Positions 26,163 through 34,560 of a stretch of DNA of 64,000 nt are shown piece by piece (position 1 is the stretch's first letter; each line of letters begins with the position of its first letter). The stretch is taken from the NCBI RefSeq assembly GCF_003967035.1, contig NZ_AP018560.1, forward strand, positions 2,279,501 to 2,343,500, given 5' to 3'. The position numbers and the translations under genes are program-made. This DNA comes from Aerosticca soli (GTDB lineage Bacteria > Pseudomonadota > Gammaproteobacteria > Xanthomonadales > Rhodanobacteraceae). Under the pieces are notes generated by a model. That model did no database searches. It was not told the DNA's origin and saw nothing but the letters and a program-made list of their open reading frames with translations.

Positions 26163-27347
26163 CTACGGGACCGACGGCACCGGCCCGGAACCGCCACGGC
26201 CGCGGCGCGGCCCGCCATCCTCGGCCGACGGACTGGGCGGCATGGCCGCGGCCGACGGATGCACCGGCGAGCGTGCGGCCGAGGCGACCTGGCGGCCTTC
26301 CCACTCGGCGCGCCAGCGCGGCAGCGCCTCGGGATAGTTGGCCTGCACGAAGGCGATCAGACCCTCGCGCACGCGACAGCGCAGATCCCAGTTGAGGCCC
26401 GAATCGGCCGAGCTCACCAGGGCCCGCAGCTGCACGCCGCGTTCGTTGGCGTCGGTCACCTGCAGCACGCAGACCCGTCCGTCCCATTCGGGCGCCGCCT
26501 TGCACAAGCGGTTGAGCTCCTCGCGCAGGGGTTCCATCGGCACGCGGTAGTCCAGCCACAGGAACACGCTGCCGATGAGCTGCGCGCCGGTGCGCGTCCA
26601 GTTCTGGAACGGGTGCTCGATGAACCAGTTGAGCGGCACCACCATGCGCCGCTCGTCCCAGATGCGCACGATGACGTAGGTGCCGGTGATTTCCTCGATG
26701 CGGCCCCACTCGCCCTCGATGATGACCACGTCGTCCAGCCGGATCGGCTGGGTCAGCGCGATCTGCAGACCGGCCACGAGATTGCTCAGCACCGGCTTGG
26801 CGGCCAGACCGAAGGCCAGGCCGGCGATGCCGGCGGAGGCCAGCAGGCTGGCGCCCAGCTGTTCGGCGCCCGGCACCCGCATCAGGGCGGCGGCGGCGCC
26901 GAGCAGGATCACCACCACGTCGGCCACCCGGCCGAGCACCTGCACCTGGGTGGCGATGCGGCGCGCCTGCAGGTTGTTCACCACGTCCAGCGGATGGCGC
27001 CGCACGGCCGCGTTCACCAGCGCATGGATGCAGCGCACCACGAGCCATGTGGTCAACCCGATCAACACGATGACCAGAAGACGCCATGGCAGCTCGAACC
27101 GGCGCAGGTCCGCGGCCGGCAGGCTGTGCAGGGCGAACGACAGCAGCAGCAGCGGCAGGAGCCAGTCCAGCGGCACCGAGGTCTTGGCCTTGAGATCGGC
27201 CAGGAAGGCACTGCGCCGGGCCAGCCGCGCAAAAATCGCGCGGACGATGGCGCGCAGCACCGCCGCGCTGGCCAAGGCGAGCACCGCCAGCACGCCGAGG
27301 CGCATCCAGATGCTTTGATCCCAGAGCTGTTCGAAACTTGCGAGCAT
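26163..27347 (-). CDS. MscS-type mechanosensitive ion channel
   Basis: A 394-residue inner-membrane channel. Four or five hydrophobic segments precede the conserved pore helix and beta-domain entry, ASLLASAGIAGLAFGLAAKP followed by VLSNLVAGLQIALTQPIRL and DDVVIIEGEWGRIEEI. These features mark MscS-family channels that open under membrane tension and release solutes in osmotic downshock. The C-terminus carries a proline/serine/glycine-rich tail of about 40 residues. The ATG at 27347 precedes the first membrane helix; the gene is divergent from the Dph6-like gene. The family also includes channels with unknown gating, so the physiological stimulus is inferred. Confidence 0.88.
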   Translation of the reverse strand: MLASFEQLWDQSIWMRLGVLAVLALASAAVLRAIVRAIFARLARRSAFLADLKAKTSVPLDWLLPLLLLSFALHSLPAADLRRFELPWRLLVIVLIGLTTWLVVRCIHALVNAAVRRHPLDVVNNLQARRIATQVQVLGRVADVVVILLGAAAALMRVPGAEQLGASLLASAGIAGLAFGLAAKPVLSNLVAGLQIALTQPIRLDDVVIIEGEWGRIEEITGTYVIVRIWDERRMVVPLNWFIEHPFQNWTRTGAQLIGSVFLWLDYRVPMEPLREELNRLCKAAPEWDGRVCVLQVTDANERGVQLRALVSSADSGLNWDLRCRVREGLIAFVQANYPEALPRWRAEWEGRQVASAARSPVHPSAAAMPPSPSAEDGGPRRGRGGSGPVPSVP

Positions 27348-27416
27348 TCGGCCAGCATGCCTGCGCCCCCGTTGGCAGGATGTGCAAAACCGTCCACTCA
27401 CGCTGCGGAGGCGCCC

Positions 27417-28091
27417 TTGCCCACTCCCATCCTGCTTGCCTGGAGCGGCGGCAAGGACTGCCTGCTCGCCCTCGCCCGCCTGCGTGCCAACCCGGCCTGG
27501 CGGGTGGTCGGGCTGCTCAGCACGGTCAACCGCCGCTTCGGGCGGGTGGCCATGCATGGCATCCGCCGCGACGTGCTCGCCGCCCAGGCCGCATCGCTCG
27601 ATCTACCGCTGCTGGAAGTGCCGATGGACTGGCCGGGCAGCAACGAGGCCTACGAGCAGGCGTACCGGCAGGCGTTGATCGCGGCCGACCGGCGCTGGCC
27701 CGGGCTGCGGCACTGCGCCTTCGGTGATCTGTATCTTGCCGACGTGCGCGCCTACCGCGAACGCCAGCTGGCCACGCTCGGGTGGACGGGCGTCTTCCCG
27801 CTGTGGGGCGAGGACACCCGCCGCCTGGCACGCCGTTTCATCGCCGAGGGCCACCGCGCCCACGTGTGCTGCGTCGACACCGCCCAACTGGACGCCAGGT
27901 TCAGCGGCGTAGCCTATGACGAGGCCTTCCTCGCCGACCTCCCCGAGGGCGTGGACCCCTGCGGCGAGCGCGGCGAATTCCACACCTTGAGCCACGCCGG
28001 CCCGCTGTTCAGCCGACCGCTCAACCTGCGCCGTGGCGAATCGCTGTTGCGCGACGGAAGGTTTCAGTTCACGGATTTCGTATCTGCATAA
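27417..28091 (+). CDS. Dph6-like ATP pyrophosphatase (diphthine-ammonia ligase family)
   Basis: The protein begins with a PP-loop, WSGGKDC, near residue 9 of 224, and carries the signature regions of the diphthine-ammonia ligase/MJ0570 family: FGDLYLADVRAYRE, PLWGED and DPCGERGEFHT. In eukaryotes and archaea this family amidates diphthine on EF2; bacteria have no diphthamide, so the reaction here is unknown, though ATP-driven adenylation is expected. A TTG at 27417 is chosen because GGAGG lies six bases before it and the PP-loop follows at once. An ATG at 27357 would add 20 residues without similarity and would leave almost no space to the divergent channel gene. Confidence 0.75.
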   Translation: MPTPILLAWSGGKDCLLALARLRANPAWRVVGLLSTVNRRFGRVAMHGIRRDVLAAQAASLDLPLLEVPMDWPGSNEAYEQAYRQALIAADRRWPGLRHCAFGDLYLADVRAYRERQLATLGWTGVFPLWGEDTRRLARRFIAEGHRAHVCCVDTAQLDARFSGVAYDEAFLADLPEGVDPCGERGEFHTLSHAGPLFSRPLNLRRGESLLRDGRFQFTDFVSA

Positions 28092-28112
28092 ATGAAATCA
28101 TATAGCACACAT

Positions 28113-28143
28113 AAAAAGGCCGCATACCTACAGGCATGCGGCC
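28113..28143 (-). terminator. Rho-independent terminator of the TonB-dependent receptor gene
   Basis: GGCCGCAT (28118-28125) pairs perfectly with ATGCGGCC (28136-28143). On the minus strand the stem is followed by five T (plus-strand A5 at 28113-28117). It lies 25 bases behind the receptor stop and between two convergent genes. Confidence 0.8.
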
Positions 28144-28167
28144 CAATATCACTACAAAAATTTCTAT

Positions 28168-31053
28168 TTAAAATTTCATAGAAATTCTGGTCCAATAATA
28201 CCGACCAACCGTGTCATAGGTGCGCTCGTCAGTATTGCCATTGAAACCATATTGCCACAACATCGGCGGCTTTTTGTCAAAAGCATTATCAATACCGACA
28301 TCTAAGCGGAAGTTCCAAGGCGTTTGGTAGCCGAACTGCAAATCGGTTTTTGCATAAGCGCCGGCATGGAAACTTTGCACACCCGTATCGGGATCCGAAG
28401 CCTGGGCAATCGTACTATAGCCACTCGGCGTCGCTACAATGTCACCAAAGCGTACCCGGCTGACATAACGCGTGCGAATGCTGGCATCAAAATCCCCAAG
28501 ACTCCACTGAACCCCGAGCAGCCCTCTTAGACGAGCAAAATTACCATCTCCTCCGTTGGCCGACGCATAGTATGTGCCAGCGAATTTATATTTGCTGCTG
28601 AGATCACCAGCAATAGCCTCACGGTTATACTCTTTGAGATACGTGGTATCCAATGTCACCACAAACGTACCAAAACTGAACTCAGGCAGCTTATAGCGTA
28701 CGCCAAAATCTATACCAGAAACATCCAGCCGACCAACATTTTGTTCAGTGTTATTGACTGTATCGATTTCACCATTGACCGGATTACGGGTGATAAGACC
28801 ACAATAACGACTGAAATTATAACATTGGTCGATAATGGTTTGAGTGCCGATGTTTCCGATAGTATCTTTCAAATAGATACGCCACAGATCCGCTGAGAGA
28901 GAAAGCCCCTCAATATAATGAGGATCATAGACAAATCCCCACGAAATAGACCGTCCATGCTCAGGCTTTAAAGAACTATTGCTCCCGTAAAGCGAACGGG
29001 TTTGAGATTGCCCCTGAACAAATCCTGGAGAAGCACCAGCACAAGCCGGATTGCCTGCTGCATAACCTGCACCAGAGCAAGGATCCTTATACGTATCAGA
29101 GCTCGGCGTAACCCCACCAAACAGATCACTGATCGTCGGCGCGCGGAAGACTTGATCAACCGTGCCGCGAATCAAAAGGTCATCAACAGGCCTATATTCA
29201 AATCCTACTCGACCATTCTTGGTTGAGCCCGCCTTGGAGAACTTCGAATAACGCCCACCAAGAGTAATATTCATAGATTTGACAAAAGGCTGGTCAGCAA
29301 GCAGAGGAACAAAAAGCTCTCCATACAGTTCTTTGACATTGGTGCTACCAGACTGAGCAGCCCTGCAAGCATCGGTACTTGTCAAACAAGTGCCGGCTTC
29401 CGGATCAGTAATCAACGAAACAAAATCCGGAGTCAATGAGGAGGTATCTTTCCGGTATTCTGCCCCTATCGAAGCACTGACCGCCCCGGCCGGCAAATTG
29501 AAAAGTTCACCATTGGCTGTAGCATAGGCCGTCTTTTCACTCGCATAACTTTGACTGGATGGCGTTACCCGAAGTTTGGCAAGCGCGTCGGCCGAAGTCT
29601 GTGGATTAAACAAATTGACCGGCACACAGTTGGATATTGGGTTGCTTGGTGTACCACAAGTGGGCACTCCATTATCATAAAAAGATGGACCAACCGCCTG
29701 CGCCAGACCTGCGTTATAATAATACCCTGTGAAGGACGATTTCTGCGTGGTACGTGCCCATACCACGCCGGCATCCCACTGCCATGTGGACTGTCCGAAC
29801 TGGCCTCGGAAACCCATGTTCATCTGATCTGCTTGGGTACTATATTTTCCAAGTCGATCGCCGCCCACGACATCACGCCAGCCGCCAGAACTTATGTCTA
29901 CCCCGAAAGGATTATAAATGCTGTTTTTCGAGAGAGGCGCGCCAATCTCAGTAAACAACAATGGCAACGGCGCAAGCTCATAGTTTGAACGGGTTTTTTG
30001 GGTAAAACCTGTAAAATACGCCTGCACCTTGTCGCTAAAATCATAATTGCCATTGACAAAAATGCCACCACGCTCGGCTGGCGTCATCTCCAGGTTATAA
30101 GGCGCGTAATTATACGTATCATTCCCAGGACCCGAACCCTTGTAACAGCGGAAATCCGATGGGCTAGTACCTGGCCGCCCATCAATACGAGTCAGCTTAC
30201 TGCAATTGAAACCAAGCGCAGCCGCCACACCTGGGGGAAGGTCGTAACGCCCTCCGGGTATATTTGAAGAACCCTGCGCAAAAATATCGCCAAAATCATT
30301 ATAAAGAGCCACCTTTGAAAAATCGCGCCGTCCAGCACTTATGGCGTCCTGCTTGTTATAATTCACGCCAACCGAAATATTTCCTTTTTCACCATTCTGA
30401 CCAAAAACCGCCGAAAATCCACGTCGTTTACCATCCCCCCCATGATCGGACAATCCATAGTCAACGTTGAATTGCGCCCCTTGAAAATTCTTGCGGGTTA
30501 TAAAATTGACCACGCCACCGATCGCGTCGGAGCCGTAGATCGTAGAGGCACCGTCTTTCAAGACTTCAACTCTCTCGATCATGGCAAGTGGAATGGAATT
30601 CAGATCTTGATAAGCCAAGCGATGGCCATCAAGCAAGAGCAGTGTACGCTGCGAACCCAAGCCACGAAGTGAAACGGTCGATGCACCGTCTCCACCACCA
30701 TTATTAACCGTCGGATTGGTCGCGGCACCAGCAATTTCCGGTAGCTGCTGAACCAAATCGCCGAGCGTCACTTTGCCGGTACGCTCGATTTGCGCACGAT
30801 CGATAGTAACAACCGGGTTAACGGTTTCAACGTCGACACGGCGAATGCGCGAACCAGTGACCGTCACTGCCTCCAGCTGCTTCGCCTGTTTGCTATCTGG
30901 AGCGGCTTGACCGCCACCTTGTGCAGCCGACTGAGTGGTTGCCGTGTCACCCGCCGGATTGGCATCCTGCGCATAAGCGGTGGCAACGAAACCCGCCCCC
31001 ATTACAAAAGCGGCGCGAATGGCCAGTCCAAGTCGATTTTTGTAGACTTTCAT
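28168..31053 (-). CDS. TonB-dependent outer-membrane receptor, low G+C
   Basis: A complete 961-residue receptor. Residues 1-28 form a signal peptide ending in AYAQ-like cleavage sequence, followed by a Gln/Ala-rich linker, the plug domain (about 58-185, with EAVTVTGSRI, STVSLRGLG and DGASTIYGSDAIGGVVNF) and a 22-strand-type barrel ending in ISMKF with a terminal Phe. Such proteins take up iron complexes, vitamins or saccharides with TonB energy. Ligand is unknown. Hand counts of three 60-base rows in the gene gave 42, 45 and 55% G+C, against 73% in a row of the neighbouring gene, which suggests acquisition. The ATG at 31053 has a strong GGGGAG ribosome site. No transporter, TonB or regulator gene adjoins it. 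Confidence 0.92.
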   Translation of the reverse strand: MKVYKNRLGLAIRAAFVMGAGFVATAYAQDANPAGDTATTQSAAQGGGQAAPDSKQAKQLEAVTVTGSRIRRVDVETVNPVVTIDRAQIERTGKVTLGDLVQQLPEIAGAATNPTVNNGGGDGASTVSLRGLGSQRTLLLLDGHRLAYQDLNSIPLAMIERVEVLKDGASTIYGSDAIGGVVNFITRKNFQGAQFNVDYGLSDHGGDGKRRGFSAVFGQNGEKGNISVGVNYNKQDAISAGRRDFSKVALYNDFGDIFAQGSSNIPGGRYDLPPGVAAALGFNCSKLTRIDGRPGTSPSDFRCYKGSGPGNDTYNYAPYNLEMTPAERGGIFVNGNYDFSDKVQAYFTGFTQKTRSNYELAPLPLLFTEIGAPLSKNSIYNPFGVDISSGGWRDVVGGDRLGKYSTQADQMNMGFRGQFGQSTWQWDAGVVWARTTQKSSFTGYYYNAGLAQAVGPSFYDNGVPTCGTPSNPISNCVPVNLFNPQTSADALAKLRVTPSSQSYASEKTAYATANGELFNLPAGAVSASIGAEYRKDTSSLTPDFVSLITDPEAGTCLTSTDACRAAQSGSTNVKELYGELFVPLLADQPFVKSMNITLGGRYSKFSKAGSTKNGRVGFEYRPVDDLLIRGTVDQVFRAPTISDLFGGVTPSSDTYKDPCSGAGYAAGNPACAGASPGFVQGQSQTRSLYGSNSSLKPEHGRSISWGFVYDPHYIEGLSLSADLWRIYLKDTIGNIGTQTIIDQCYNFSRYCGLITRNPVNGEIDTVNNTEQNVGRLDVSGIDFGVRYKLPEFSFGTFVVTLDTTYLKEYNREAIAGDLSSKYKFAGTYYASANGGDGNFARLRGLLGVQWSLGDFDASIRTRYVSRVRFGDIVATPSGYSTIAQASDPDTGVQSFHAGAYAKTDLQFGYQTPWNFRLDVGIDNAFDKKPPMLWQYGFNGNTDERTYDTVGRYYWTRISMKF

Positions 31054-31147
31054 GTGAGCTCCCCTATTTTTGACGGAAAGTCATTGGCCGAAGCCAGATA
31101 ACGCCGAACCTGCTGAACCACCCAGTTGTCGAGCTGGGGTGACCCAA

Positions 31148-31175
31148 GTATTACGTTTTTGTGATGACGGAACAA
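31148..31175 (-). promoter_or_regulatory. Candidate promoter of the TonB-dependent receptor
   Basis: On the minus strand TTGTTC (31170-31175) and TAATAC (31148-31153) are spaced by 16 bases, a fair sigma-70 match, in the 145-base A+T-richer gap behind kdpE. A dyad (CACCCAG with CTGGGGTG, 31119-31141) would lie in the leader of the message, about 65 bases before the ATG. Confidence 0.35.
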
Positions 31176-31198
31176 GCGTGCCCGCAGCCAACGTCCCA

Positions 31199-31903
31199 TC
31201 AATCCATCCGCCCGCCCTGGAAGCGATATCCAACGCCCGGCTCGGTCTTGAGCCACCGCGGCGCGGCCGGATCATCGCCGAGCTTCTGGCGCAGCTTGCC
31301 GACCACGATGCGCAGGTAATGGGTATCGTGCACGTGGCTCGGTCCCCAGATCTCGCGCAGCAGTTGCTGCTGCGTCACCACCCGGCCGGCGTGGCGCAGC
31401 AGCAGGGCAAGCACGGCGTATTCCTTGCGCGTGAGCGCGACCGGCGCACCGTCGAGCCACACCTCGCGACGGGCCTGATCGATGACCAATCGACCGTCGT
31501 CGTAACGTGGCGGCGCAGCGCCGGCGGGCGCGACGCGGTCGCGCAGCAGCGCGCGCAGACGCGCCATCAGTTCCTGGATACCGAACGGCTTGGTCACGTA
31601 GTCGTTGGCGCCGCCGTCCAGCGCGCGTACCTTCTCGTCCTCGGCGTCGCGCACCGACAGCATCAGCACCGGCACCTGGCTCCACTGGCGCAGCTCGGCC
31701 AGCACCTCGTGGCCCTCGCGGTCGGGCAGGCCGATGTCGAGGATCACCAGGTCCGGCGAGCGCGTGGCGGCCAGCGCCAGGCCCGCGGCGGCATCGGCCG
31801 CGAGCAGCACCTCGTAGCCTTCCGCGCGCAGGCCGATGTCGAGGAAGCGGCGGATCTGCGCCTCGTCGTCGATGACCAGCACGCGCGGGACAGGAGCGTT
31901 CAT
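31199..31903 (-). CDS. kdpE: Potassium-responsive response regulator KdpE
   Basis: An OmpR/PhoB-type regulator of 234 residues. The receiver domain (1-120) has the phosphorylated Asp56 in VILDIGLPD and the Lys in VTKPFG; the winged-helix domain (130-230) ends with TEPGVGYRF. KdpE is phosphorylated by KdpD and activates the kdp promoter when potassium is limiting. Its start overlaps the kdpD stop in ATGA. It closes the kdp gene set; the next gene on the strand is the low-G+C receptor. Confidence 0.95.
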   Translation of the reverse strand: MNAPVPRVLVIDDEAQIRRFLDIGLRAEGYEVLLAADAAAGLALAATRSPDLVILDIGLPDREGHEVLAELRQWSQVPVLMLSVRDAEDEKVRALDGGANDYVTKPFGIQELMARLRALLRDRVAPAGAAPPRYDDGRLVIDQARREVWLDGAPVALTRKEYAVLALLLRHAGRVVTQQQLLREIWGPSHVHDTHYLRIVVGKLRQKLGDDPAAPRWLKTEPGVGYRFQGGRMD

Positions 31904-34560
31904 GGGGCCGAATCGGGCGGCGGCGGCAGCGGCAGGGCGATGCGAATGGTGGTGCCTCCGCCGGCGCGGGGCAAGGCCTCCACACTGCCGCCGTGCGCAC
32001 CGATCATGCCGCGGCAGATCGCCAGCCCCAGCCCGGTGCCCTGCGGCGAGCGGTCGCCGCGCGACACCGAGTAGAACATGTCGAAGATGCGCGCGCGCTC
32101 CTCCTCCGGGATGCCGGGGCCGCGGTCGCCCACCTCGATCAGCAGCCGCTCGCCCACCACGCGCGCCTCCACGTGCACGGCCTGGTCCGGCGGGGAGAAG
32201 CGCGCGGCGTTCTCCAGGATGTTGAACAGCGCCTGCTCGATCAATGCGGGGTGCACGTAGAGCAGCACGGTGTCGGCCGGCAGCGCCATGTCCACGCGCA
32301 GCTCGGGGAACAGCCGGCGCAGGCGCGCCACGGCGGCGGCGGCGATCTCGGCCACGTCCACCCAGTCGCGGTTGAGCTTGAGCGTGCCGTGACCGAGCCG
32401 GGTCATGTCGAGCAGGTTCTGGATGTAGCGGTCCAGCCGCTGGCCCTCGCCCAGGATGGCTTCCAGCAGCTGGGCGCGCTCCTCCGCCGGCAGCTGCCCG
32501 CCGTAGCTGGCCAGCGTGCCGGCCGCGCCGATCATCGAGGCCAGCGGCGAACGCAGGTCGTGCGAGACCGAGGACAGCAGTGCGCTGCGCAGCCGCTCGG
32601 TCTCGCCCTGCACGCGCGCGCTCTCCAGCTCCTCCGCCAGCCGCGCCCGCTCCAGCGCCAGACCGATGTCCTGCGCCATCGCCAGCGCCAGGCCGCGGCG
32701 GTCGGCGTCGGGCTCGCCCTCCTCCGCGCCGAAGCGCAGTGCGGCGGCGCCGAGCGGGTTGTCGTCGCTGCCCAGCGGCAGGGTCCAGCAGCCGGCGGCG
32801 TTGAGGGTGTCGGTGTAGCGGCCGGCGGGCTCCGCGTGGCGGTCGCTCCAGTCGGCGGCGGCCACGTCCTGCGCGCTCAGCGCCAGGCCGCGCGGCCAGG
32901 TCGAGAGCACCCGCATCGTCCTGTCCGCGTCGCGGCCCAGGATCGCCGCCTGCGCGCCCAGCGCCTGCGCCAGCGCCTGCGCGCCCACGTCGCGCACGCC
33001 CTCGGCGTCGGCGCTGGCGGCCAGCCGCTGCCCCAGCGCCAGCAGCGCCCGCGCGCGCGTCTGCGCGCCGCGCAGCGATTCCACCTGGGTGGCCAGGCGG
33101 GTCGCCATGCGGCTGCACACCAGCGCCACCACCAGGAACAGCAGCACCGCCAGCACGTCGTCCACGTTGGCGATGGCGAGCGTGTAGCGCGGCGGCGCGA
33201 AGAAGAAGTTGTAGCCGAGGAAGCACAGCACGGCCGTATAGACGGCCACGAGCATGCGCGTGCGCGAGGCCACCGCCAGCACGGCGGTGAGGAAGATCAG
33301 CGCGAGGTTGGCCACCGACAGGTAGCGGTCGGCCAGGAACGCCAGGCCGAAGGCCGCCAGCGTGGCCAGCGTGGCGAAGGCGTACTCGCGGCGCGTGCCG
33401 CGGCCGCCGGGCAGCTGCAGGCGCCGCCGCGCCCGCGCGCGCTCGGCCGGAGTGGCGATGATCGCCAGCTCCAGGTGCGCGCCGCGGCGCAGCAGCTGCT
33501 GGGTGAGCGACAGGCCCAGCATGCGCGCCAGCGGCCGCTCGCGCGTGCGTCCCAGGATGATCTGCCCCACGCCCTCGCGGTCGGCGTGCGCCAGCAGCTC
33601 GTCGGCGACCGCCGGCCCGCGCAGGATCACCGCGTCGCCGCCGAGCCGGCGCGCTAGCCGCATCGCCGCGTCGACGCGCTCGCGGCGGGCCGGCTCGACC
33701 GCGCCGCCGGTGTCGACGAAGGCCACGCTCCACGGCGCGCCGCGCCTCTCGGCGATGCGCCGCGCCACGCGCACCAGGTACTCGCTCTGCGCGTGGCCGT
33801 CGATCGCGGCCAGCACGCGCCGGCGCACCGGCATGGCGCCGCCGCGCGCCAGCATGTGCTCGCGCAGGTCGCTCTCCACGTGGCTGGCGATCGTCTCCAC
33901 CGCCAGCTCGCGCAGCGCGGCGAGGTTGGTGGGCGAGAAGAAGGCGTCCAGCGCCGCCGCCGCGGTCTCGGGCACGTACACCTTGCCCTGCTTGAGCCGC
34001 TCGATCAGCTCGCGCGGCGGCAGGTCCACCAGCACGATGTCGCGGGCGCGATCGAGGAAGGCATCCGGCACCGTCTCGCGCACGGTGATGCCGGTGATGC
34101 GACGCACCTGATCGTTGAGGCTTTCCAGGTGCTGCACGTTGAGCGTGGTGTAGACCTCGATGCCAGCATCGAGCAGTTCGGCCACGTCCTGCCAGCGCCG
34201 CTCGTGACGGCTGCCCGGCAGGTTGCGATGCGCCAGTTCGTCGACCAGCAGCACCGCCGGCCGGCGCGCCAGCGCGGCGTCGAGGTCGAATTCCTCGAAA
34301 TCGCGATCGCGATGACGCACGCGGCGACGCGGCAACACCTCCAGGTCTTCGAGCAGGGCAGCGGTCTCGGTGCGACCGTGCGTTTCCACCACGCCCGCCA
34401 CCACATCCACGCCCTGACGCTTCAATTCGCGCGCGGCCGACAGCATCGCGTAGGTCTTGCCCACGCCGGGCGCGGCGCCCAGAAAGACCTTCAGCCGACG
34501 CTGTTCCTCCTGCGCGGCGTCGAGCAGAGCATCCGCGCGGACCTGGCGATCGTCGTTCAT
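31900..34560 (-). CDS. kdpD: Sensor histidine kinase KdpD
   Basis: This 886-residue kinase senses low potassium and osmotic or ionic stress. The N-terminal KdpD domain starts with a Walker [10 protein letters not shown], near residue 28, and a universal-stress-type domain follows at about 250-370. Four membrane helices lie near 395-495, then a GAF-like region, the H-box SHDLRSPL with phosphorylated His667, and the ATPase domain with DRGPGIP and GTGLGLAI. All expected parts are intact. The ATG at 34560 lies 29 bases after kdpC. The stop overlaps the kdpE start. Confidence 0.97.

What the first reader, a model, noticed from the sequence alone, without database searches (positions are those of the whole stretch)
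28092..31198. Low-G+C TonB-dependent receptor island in a 70% G+C genome
Three 60-base rows in the receptor gene counted by hand at 42, 45 and 55% G+C against 73% in a row of the neighbour. The reading frame is complete with its own terminator and a candidate promoter, but no mobility gene or repeat flanks it. It looks like a single transferred gene, or the remnant of a larger island, that stays functional. The ligand is unknown and there is no partner transporter.
Basis: partly seen in the sequence, partly recalled or inferred. Interest (0 to 1): 0.65.

Follow-up and report, generated by a model that had tools for sequence, protein, structure and literature searches.

The report
Foreign receptor gene replacing mug
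A single outer-membrane uptake-receptor gene from a much lower-G+C bacterium has taken the place of a DNA-repair gene (mug) between two otherwise conserved neighbours: a clear but ordinary case of one-gene horizontal transfer.

Summary
Window 28168-31053 (-) is an intact 961-aa TonB-dependent receptor, 49.6% G+C (GC3 0.46), in a genome sampled at 68% (sd 3-4%). In the nearest relative (KdpE 92-93% identical) and in a second genome, the order is dph6-like > mug > < kdpE. In a third, mug abuts kdpE at a contig end. mug (G/U-mismatch DNA glycosylase) directly follows dph6-like in 28 of 29 relatives and has no match anywhere in this genome. So about 3.1 kb of foreign DNA (receptor, own terminator, own upstream spacer) replaced mug and the last codons of both neighbours. 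The barrel groups (support 100) with receptors of two distant genera of the family. Those homologues are 60-66% G+C, so the immediate donor is a low-G+C relative not in the collections. In 8 of 9 of those genera's loci a TPR-sulfotransferase follows the receptor; here the receptor came alone. No integrase, IS, tRNA or flanking repeat was found. It is not unique: 3 of 23 receptors in this genome are low-G+C. Mechanism: TonB-powered uptake of an unknown ligand, acquired by illegitimate recombination. Interest is low to moderate.

The parts
28168..31053 (-). TonB-dependent receptor, 961 aa, G+C 0.496, GC3 0.457
   Evidence: ORF; PF07715 Plug 1.6e-25 and PF00593 barrel 9.2e-31; composition
28080..31220 (.). 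exchanged foreign segment: replaces mug and the 3' tails of dph6-like and kdpE
   Evidence: blastn homology to relatives G007/G226 ends at 28079 and resumes at 31219-31221; junction sequences
28117..28144 (-). intrinsic terminator of the receptor gene (12-bp stem, T-run)
   Evidence: fold z-score -5.8 for the 3' region
31054..31198 (-). upstream spacer of the receptor, G+C 0.545, no meaningful match in other loci; presumed promoter region, promoter not shown
27417..28091 (+). dph6-like (PF01902) gene; last codons replaced by foreign sequence (FVSA*)
31199..31903 (-). kdpE response regulator; C-terminal residues replaced
   Evidence: best NCBIfam model is KdpE, below that model's cut-off; 92-93% identical in G007
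26163..27557 (-). MscS-like channel gene between rng and dph6-like (context; absent where rng and dph6-like are adjacent in G226 and G015)

Best explanation
A self-contained receptor gene (coding region, terminator and upstream spacer, about 3.1 kb) from an unsampled lower-G+C relative, probably within the same order, was inserted between dph6-like and kdpE by illegitimate or end-joining recombination. It deleted mug and the last codons of both neighbours. The gene remains intact and most likely makes a working outer-membrane active transporter: the ligand binds the barrel and plug outside, TonB pulls on the N-terminal TonB box, and the ligand enters the periplasm. Shown: composition, intactness, phylogenetic position of the barrel, mug at this site in relatives, no mug match in this genome. 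Inferred: transfer as one event, expression, TonB coupling. Unknown: the ligand and the donor.
For: Composition far outside the genome and outside the other homologues read, GC3 0.62-0.97. Nearest relative G007 has dph6-mug-kdpE at this locus (KdpE 92-93%) and only a 37%-identical receptor elsewhere. G226 has the same order; G235 has mug abutting kdpE. mug follows dph6-like in 28 of 29 loci, occurs in 173 of 232 family genomes, and has no match here. The barrel joins the g5/g15 clade at SH-aLRT 100, and grouping it with the g14/g19 receptors is rejected, p-AU 0.0001. Junctions fall inside the 3' ends of both neighbours. Plug and barrel are complete and the C-terminus ends in Phe.
Against: No donor with matching composition was found in the family, order and class genomes searched or in plasmids (best 31-32%). 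No mobility gene or target repeat marks the mechanism. The genus has only one genome here, so strain-level polymorphism could not be seen. mug loss and receptor gain could be two separate events. The plug domain does not clearly place with the same clade as the barrel.
Confidence: 0.82

Rival explanations
1. A native, vertically inherited receptor whose base composition drifted or is kept low by selection.
For: Homologues are widespread in the family; two other receptors and a PilY1-like gene in this genome are also low in G+C.
Against: 20 of 23 plug-containing genes in this genome are 0.60-0.68 G+C; the other homologues read have GC3 of at least 0.62; the nearest genus lacks the clade and holds mug at the site.
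Confidence: 0.05
2. Remnant of a larger low-G+C island that first carried the receptor with its sulfotransferase/hydroxylase cluster or mobility genes, since eroded to one gene.
For: 8 of 9 closest homologues have a TPR-sulfotransferase directly downstream, 7 also an Asp beta-hydroxylase; a low-G+C receptor plus TPR-sulfotransferase exists elsewhere in this genome.
Against: The receptor ends in its own terminator and both junctions are sharp, with only 76 and 145 nt of spacer and no gene fragments seen; the compositional similarity to the other island is within noise.
Confidence: 0.1
3. Assembly artefact or contaminating DNA joined into the contig.
For: Only one genome of the genus is available.
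Against: The genome is a single 2.87-Mb contig, 99.97% complete with 0 contamination; the reading frame is intact and both neighbours keep plausible stops.
Confidence: 0.03

Closest known systems
TonB-dependent receptors with Plug (PF07715) and barrel (PF00593)
   Same: Both domains over their cut-offs, signal-peptide-like start, candidate TonB box, C-terminal Phe.
   Different: No curated NCBIfam subfamily reached: best TonB-B12 at 99 bits against a cut-off of 600; solved structures align mainly over the plug region. Ligand class unassigned.
Receptors of genera g5 and g15 of the same family (e.g. L009, L010, L042-L047), 56-58% identical
   Same: One clade with the query, full-length alignment.
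   Different: G+C 0.60-0.66, a different locus, and in 8 of 9 followed by a TPR-sulfotransferase, in 7 with an Asp beta-hydroxylase.
Horizontally exchanged TonB-dependent transporters in Xanthomonas (PMC6090828)
   Same: Four TonB-dependent transporter genes are listed there among the bean-specificity candidates, three of them flagged recombinant and all four flagged HGT.
   Different: None of the four is marked for atypical G+C in that table; here the gene is strongly atypical and replaced a repair gene.

Membership tests
TonB-dependent receptor | N-terminal plug domain (PF07715) | tested here: met
   90.1 bits against cut-off 23.9, residues 76-181
TonB-dependent receptor | C-terminal beta-barrel (PF00593) | tested here: met
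   108.6 bits against cut-off 27, residues 381-923
TonB-dependent receptor | signal peptide, TonB box, terminal aromatic residue | tested here: inconclusive
   Read by eye: signal-like N-terminus, LEAVTVTGSRI at about residue 60, final Phe; no dedicated predictor was run
TonB-dependent receptor | energy-coupled ligand uptake | not testable with these tools
   needs experiment
Horizontally acquired gene | composition unlike the genome | tested here: met
Horizontally acquired gene | gene tree conflicts with species relations | tested here: met
   Groups with g5/g15 while KdpE and the locus place the genome next to G007; no full species tree was built
Horizontally acquired gene | site without the gene in relatives | tested here: met
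   G007, G226 and G235 carry mug there instead
Mobile genetic element / genomic island | integrase, transposase, tRNA target or flanking direct repeats | tested here: not met
   none found next to the gene

The most novel reading that the evidence does not exclude
The receptor belongs to an undescribed receptor system in which a TPR-sulfotransferase and an Fe(II)/2-oxoglutarate-type hydroxylase modify the receptor or its ligand. Here the captured receptor works with the enzyme encoded in another low-G+C island of the same genome (2,717,936-2,719,489), so two foreign pieces together form one function.
Probability: 0.08. Interest if true: 0.55.

Novelty: new member of a known kind. Interest (0 to 1): 0.3.

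Why it matters
It is a clean example of a one-gene exchange in which a surface receptor was gained and a DNA-repair gene (mug) lost at the same spot, without visible mobility machinery. It also shows that low-G+C surface receptors recur in this high-G+C genome, and that this receptor family usually sits with, and can move without, a sulfotransferase/hydroxylase module whose role is unknown.

Tried and rejected
Donor search: 61 relatives, 234 family, 369 class and 399 order genomes, viral contigs, plasmids and GTDB contigs gave no low-G+C close homologue. Structure prediction with a three-row alignment failed (pLDDT 26), so no fold search was run. The idea that this gene and the second low-G+C receptor island share one donor: dinucleotide distance looked small (0.03-0.04), but the two halves of the query differ by 0.076 and codon usage gives no special link, so it was dropped. 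Plug/barrel mosaicism: the plug falls outside the barrel's clade, but no starred branch supports it. Known RNA family (Rfam) in 27000-32500: none. Literature searches found nothing on receptor-sulfotransferase operons in the held library. A guess at the species name from memory could not be checked and is not used.

Full report
OBSERVATION. The receptor gene is real and the G+C drop is real. 1-kb windows across 28001-30500 read 0.466-0.53 while the surroundings read 0.65-0.76. The gene (28168-31053, minus strand) is 0.496 with GC1 0.55, GC2 0.48 and GC3 0.457; its 76-nt 3' flank is 0.38 and its 145-nt upstream spacer 0.545, against 0.70-0.71 in both neighbouring genes. In 228 pieces of 2.9 kb sampled across the genome the mean is 0.681 (sd 0.033) and two pieces fall below 0.55; the dinucleotide signature is also far off (0.142 against 0.061 +/- 0.022; 2 of 228 as far).

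WHAT IT ENCODES. A 961-aa TonB-dependent receptor with Plug and barrel domains, a signal-like start, LEAVTVTGSRI as candidate TonB box and a terminal Phe. It fits no curated NCBIfam subfamily: all hits are far below cut-off. Solved structures match mainly over the plug region. A strong terminator lies at 28144-28117 (z = -5.8). No promoter above chance was found.

THE SITE. The genome is one 2.87-Mb contig and the only one of its genus held. In relative G007 (KdpE 92-93% identical) dph6-like lies at C3:202552-203217 (+) and kdpE at 203782-204459 (-), with one gene between: a 178-aa UDG-superfamily protein whose best model is the G/U-mismatch DNA glycosylase Mug, PF03167. The Mug model's own cut-off is not reached (103.7 against 144 bits), so the exact enzyme name is likely rather than certain. 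G226 has the same order, and in G235 mug abuts kdpE at a contig end. mug directly follows dph6-like in 28 of 29 relatives' loci examined and is found in 173 of 232 family genomes, but the same query finds nothing in this genome even at E = 10. Homology to the relatives stops at about 28079, inside the last codons of dph6-like, and resumes at 31219-31221, inside the last codons of kdpE. The simplest reading is one replacement: foreign receptor in, mug out. Two separate events cannot be excluded.

ORIGIN. The best homologues are 56-58% identical and lie in genera g5 and g15 of the same family. The barrel forms one clade with them (SH-aLRT 100) and forcing it with the g14/g19 receptors is rejected. 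The 180-column plug tree leaves it outside that clade without strong support. The other homologues read have GC3 of at least 0.62 (one row, L172, was read in the wrong frame and is not counted), so the direct donor is not in the sample; wider searches found none closer. The nearest genus has only a 37% match. The conclusion is transfer from an unsampled lower-G+C lineage, probably within the order.

PARTNERS. In the g5/g15 loci the receptor is followed by a TPR-sulfotransferase (PF13469) in 8 of 9 cases, with an Asp/Asn beta-hydroxylase (PF05118) in 7, and in 16 of 20 loci examined overall a member of the TPR-sulfotransferase cluster is beside or near the receptor. Gene calls there come from a simple script, and only representatives were scanned against Pfam. 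None of these is near the receptor here; this genome has three PF13469 matches, all outside the window. One of them, at 2,717,936-2,719,489, sits in another low-G+C stretch beside another low-G+C receptor. Whether it serves the window's receptor is speculation.

CONTEXT. Of 23 plug-containing genes in the genome, 3 are low in G+C (this one, about 381,557-384,625 and 2,714,796-2,717,843), the rest being 0.60-0.68. A PilY1-like gene is also low. So the genome has taken up, or keeps, several low-G+C surface genes.

MECHANISM. Most likely a TonB-powered importer of an unknown organic or metal-bound ligand. Activity is inferred from intactness; coupling to TonB and expression were not shown. Transfer most likely occurred by DNA uptake and illegitimate recombination, because no integrase, IS, tRNA or credible repeat is present.

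VERDICT. Composition and single-gene transfer are confirmed; 'empty site' is corrected to 'replacement of mug'. A known kind of event, with precedent for transferred TonB-dependent transporters in Xanthomonas (PMC6090828).

Noticed in passing
L067-L085 (e.g. L069:7766-14405): Close homologues of the receptor lie in a conserved cluster: unknown protein, receptor, TPR-sulfotransferase, then sulfotransferase and/or Asp beta-hydroxylase or 2OG-Fe(II) oxygenase. No description found in the paper library.
   Followed up: partly
L164:14796-19489 (genome 2,714,796-2,719,489): Second low-G+C stretch (about 0.46-0.51): CarboxypepD_reg-type receptor plus TPR-sulfotransferase.
   Followed up: partly
L202:5558-8626 (genome about 381,557-384,625): Third low-G+C receptor (0.52-0.54), alone between a predicted phosphoesterase and a predicted phosphodiesterase gene (read by eye).
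   Followed up: partly
L161:909-5572 (genome about 1,900,909-1,905,572): A PilY1-like gene and the 5' neighbour, pilus-assembly-like (both identified by eye), lie in a stretch of about 0.51 G+C.
   Followed up: no
window 26163-27557: MscS-like gene sits between rng and dph6-like; in G226 and G015 rng and dph6-like are adjacent, and in G007 other genes occupy the gap, so this junction varies too.
   Followed up: partly
L196 (genome 1,731,616-1,731,951): Plug domain in a 377-aa open frame with six stops within the next 1.2 kb: likely a decayed or truncated receptor.
   Followed up: no
L054 and L055: Identical 1023-aa receptors in two genomes assigned to different genera (g25, g19), each in a fragmented assembly: contamination or very recent transfer.
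   Followed up: no
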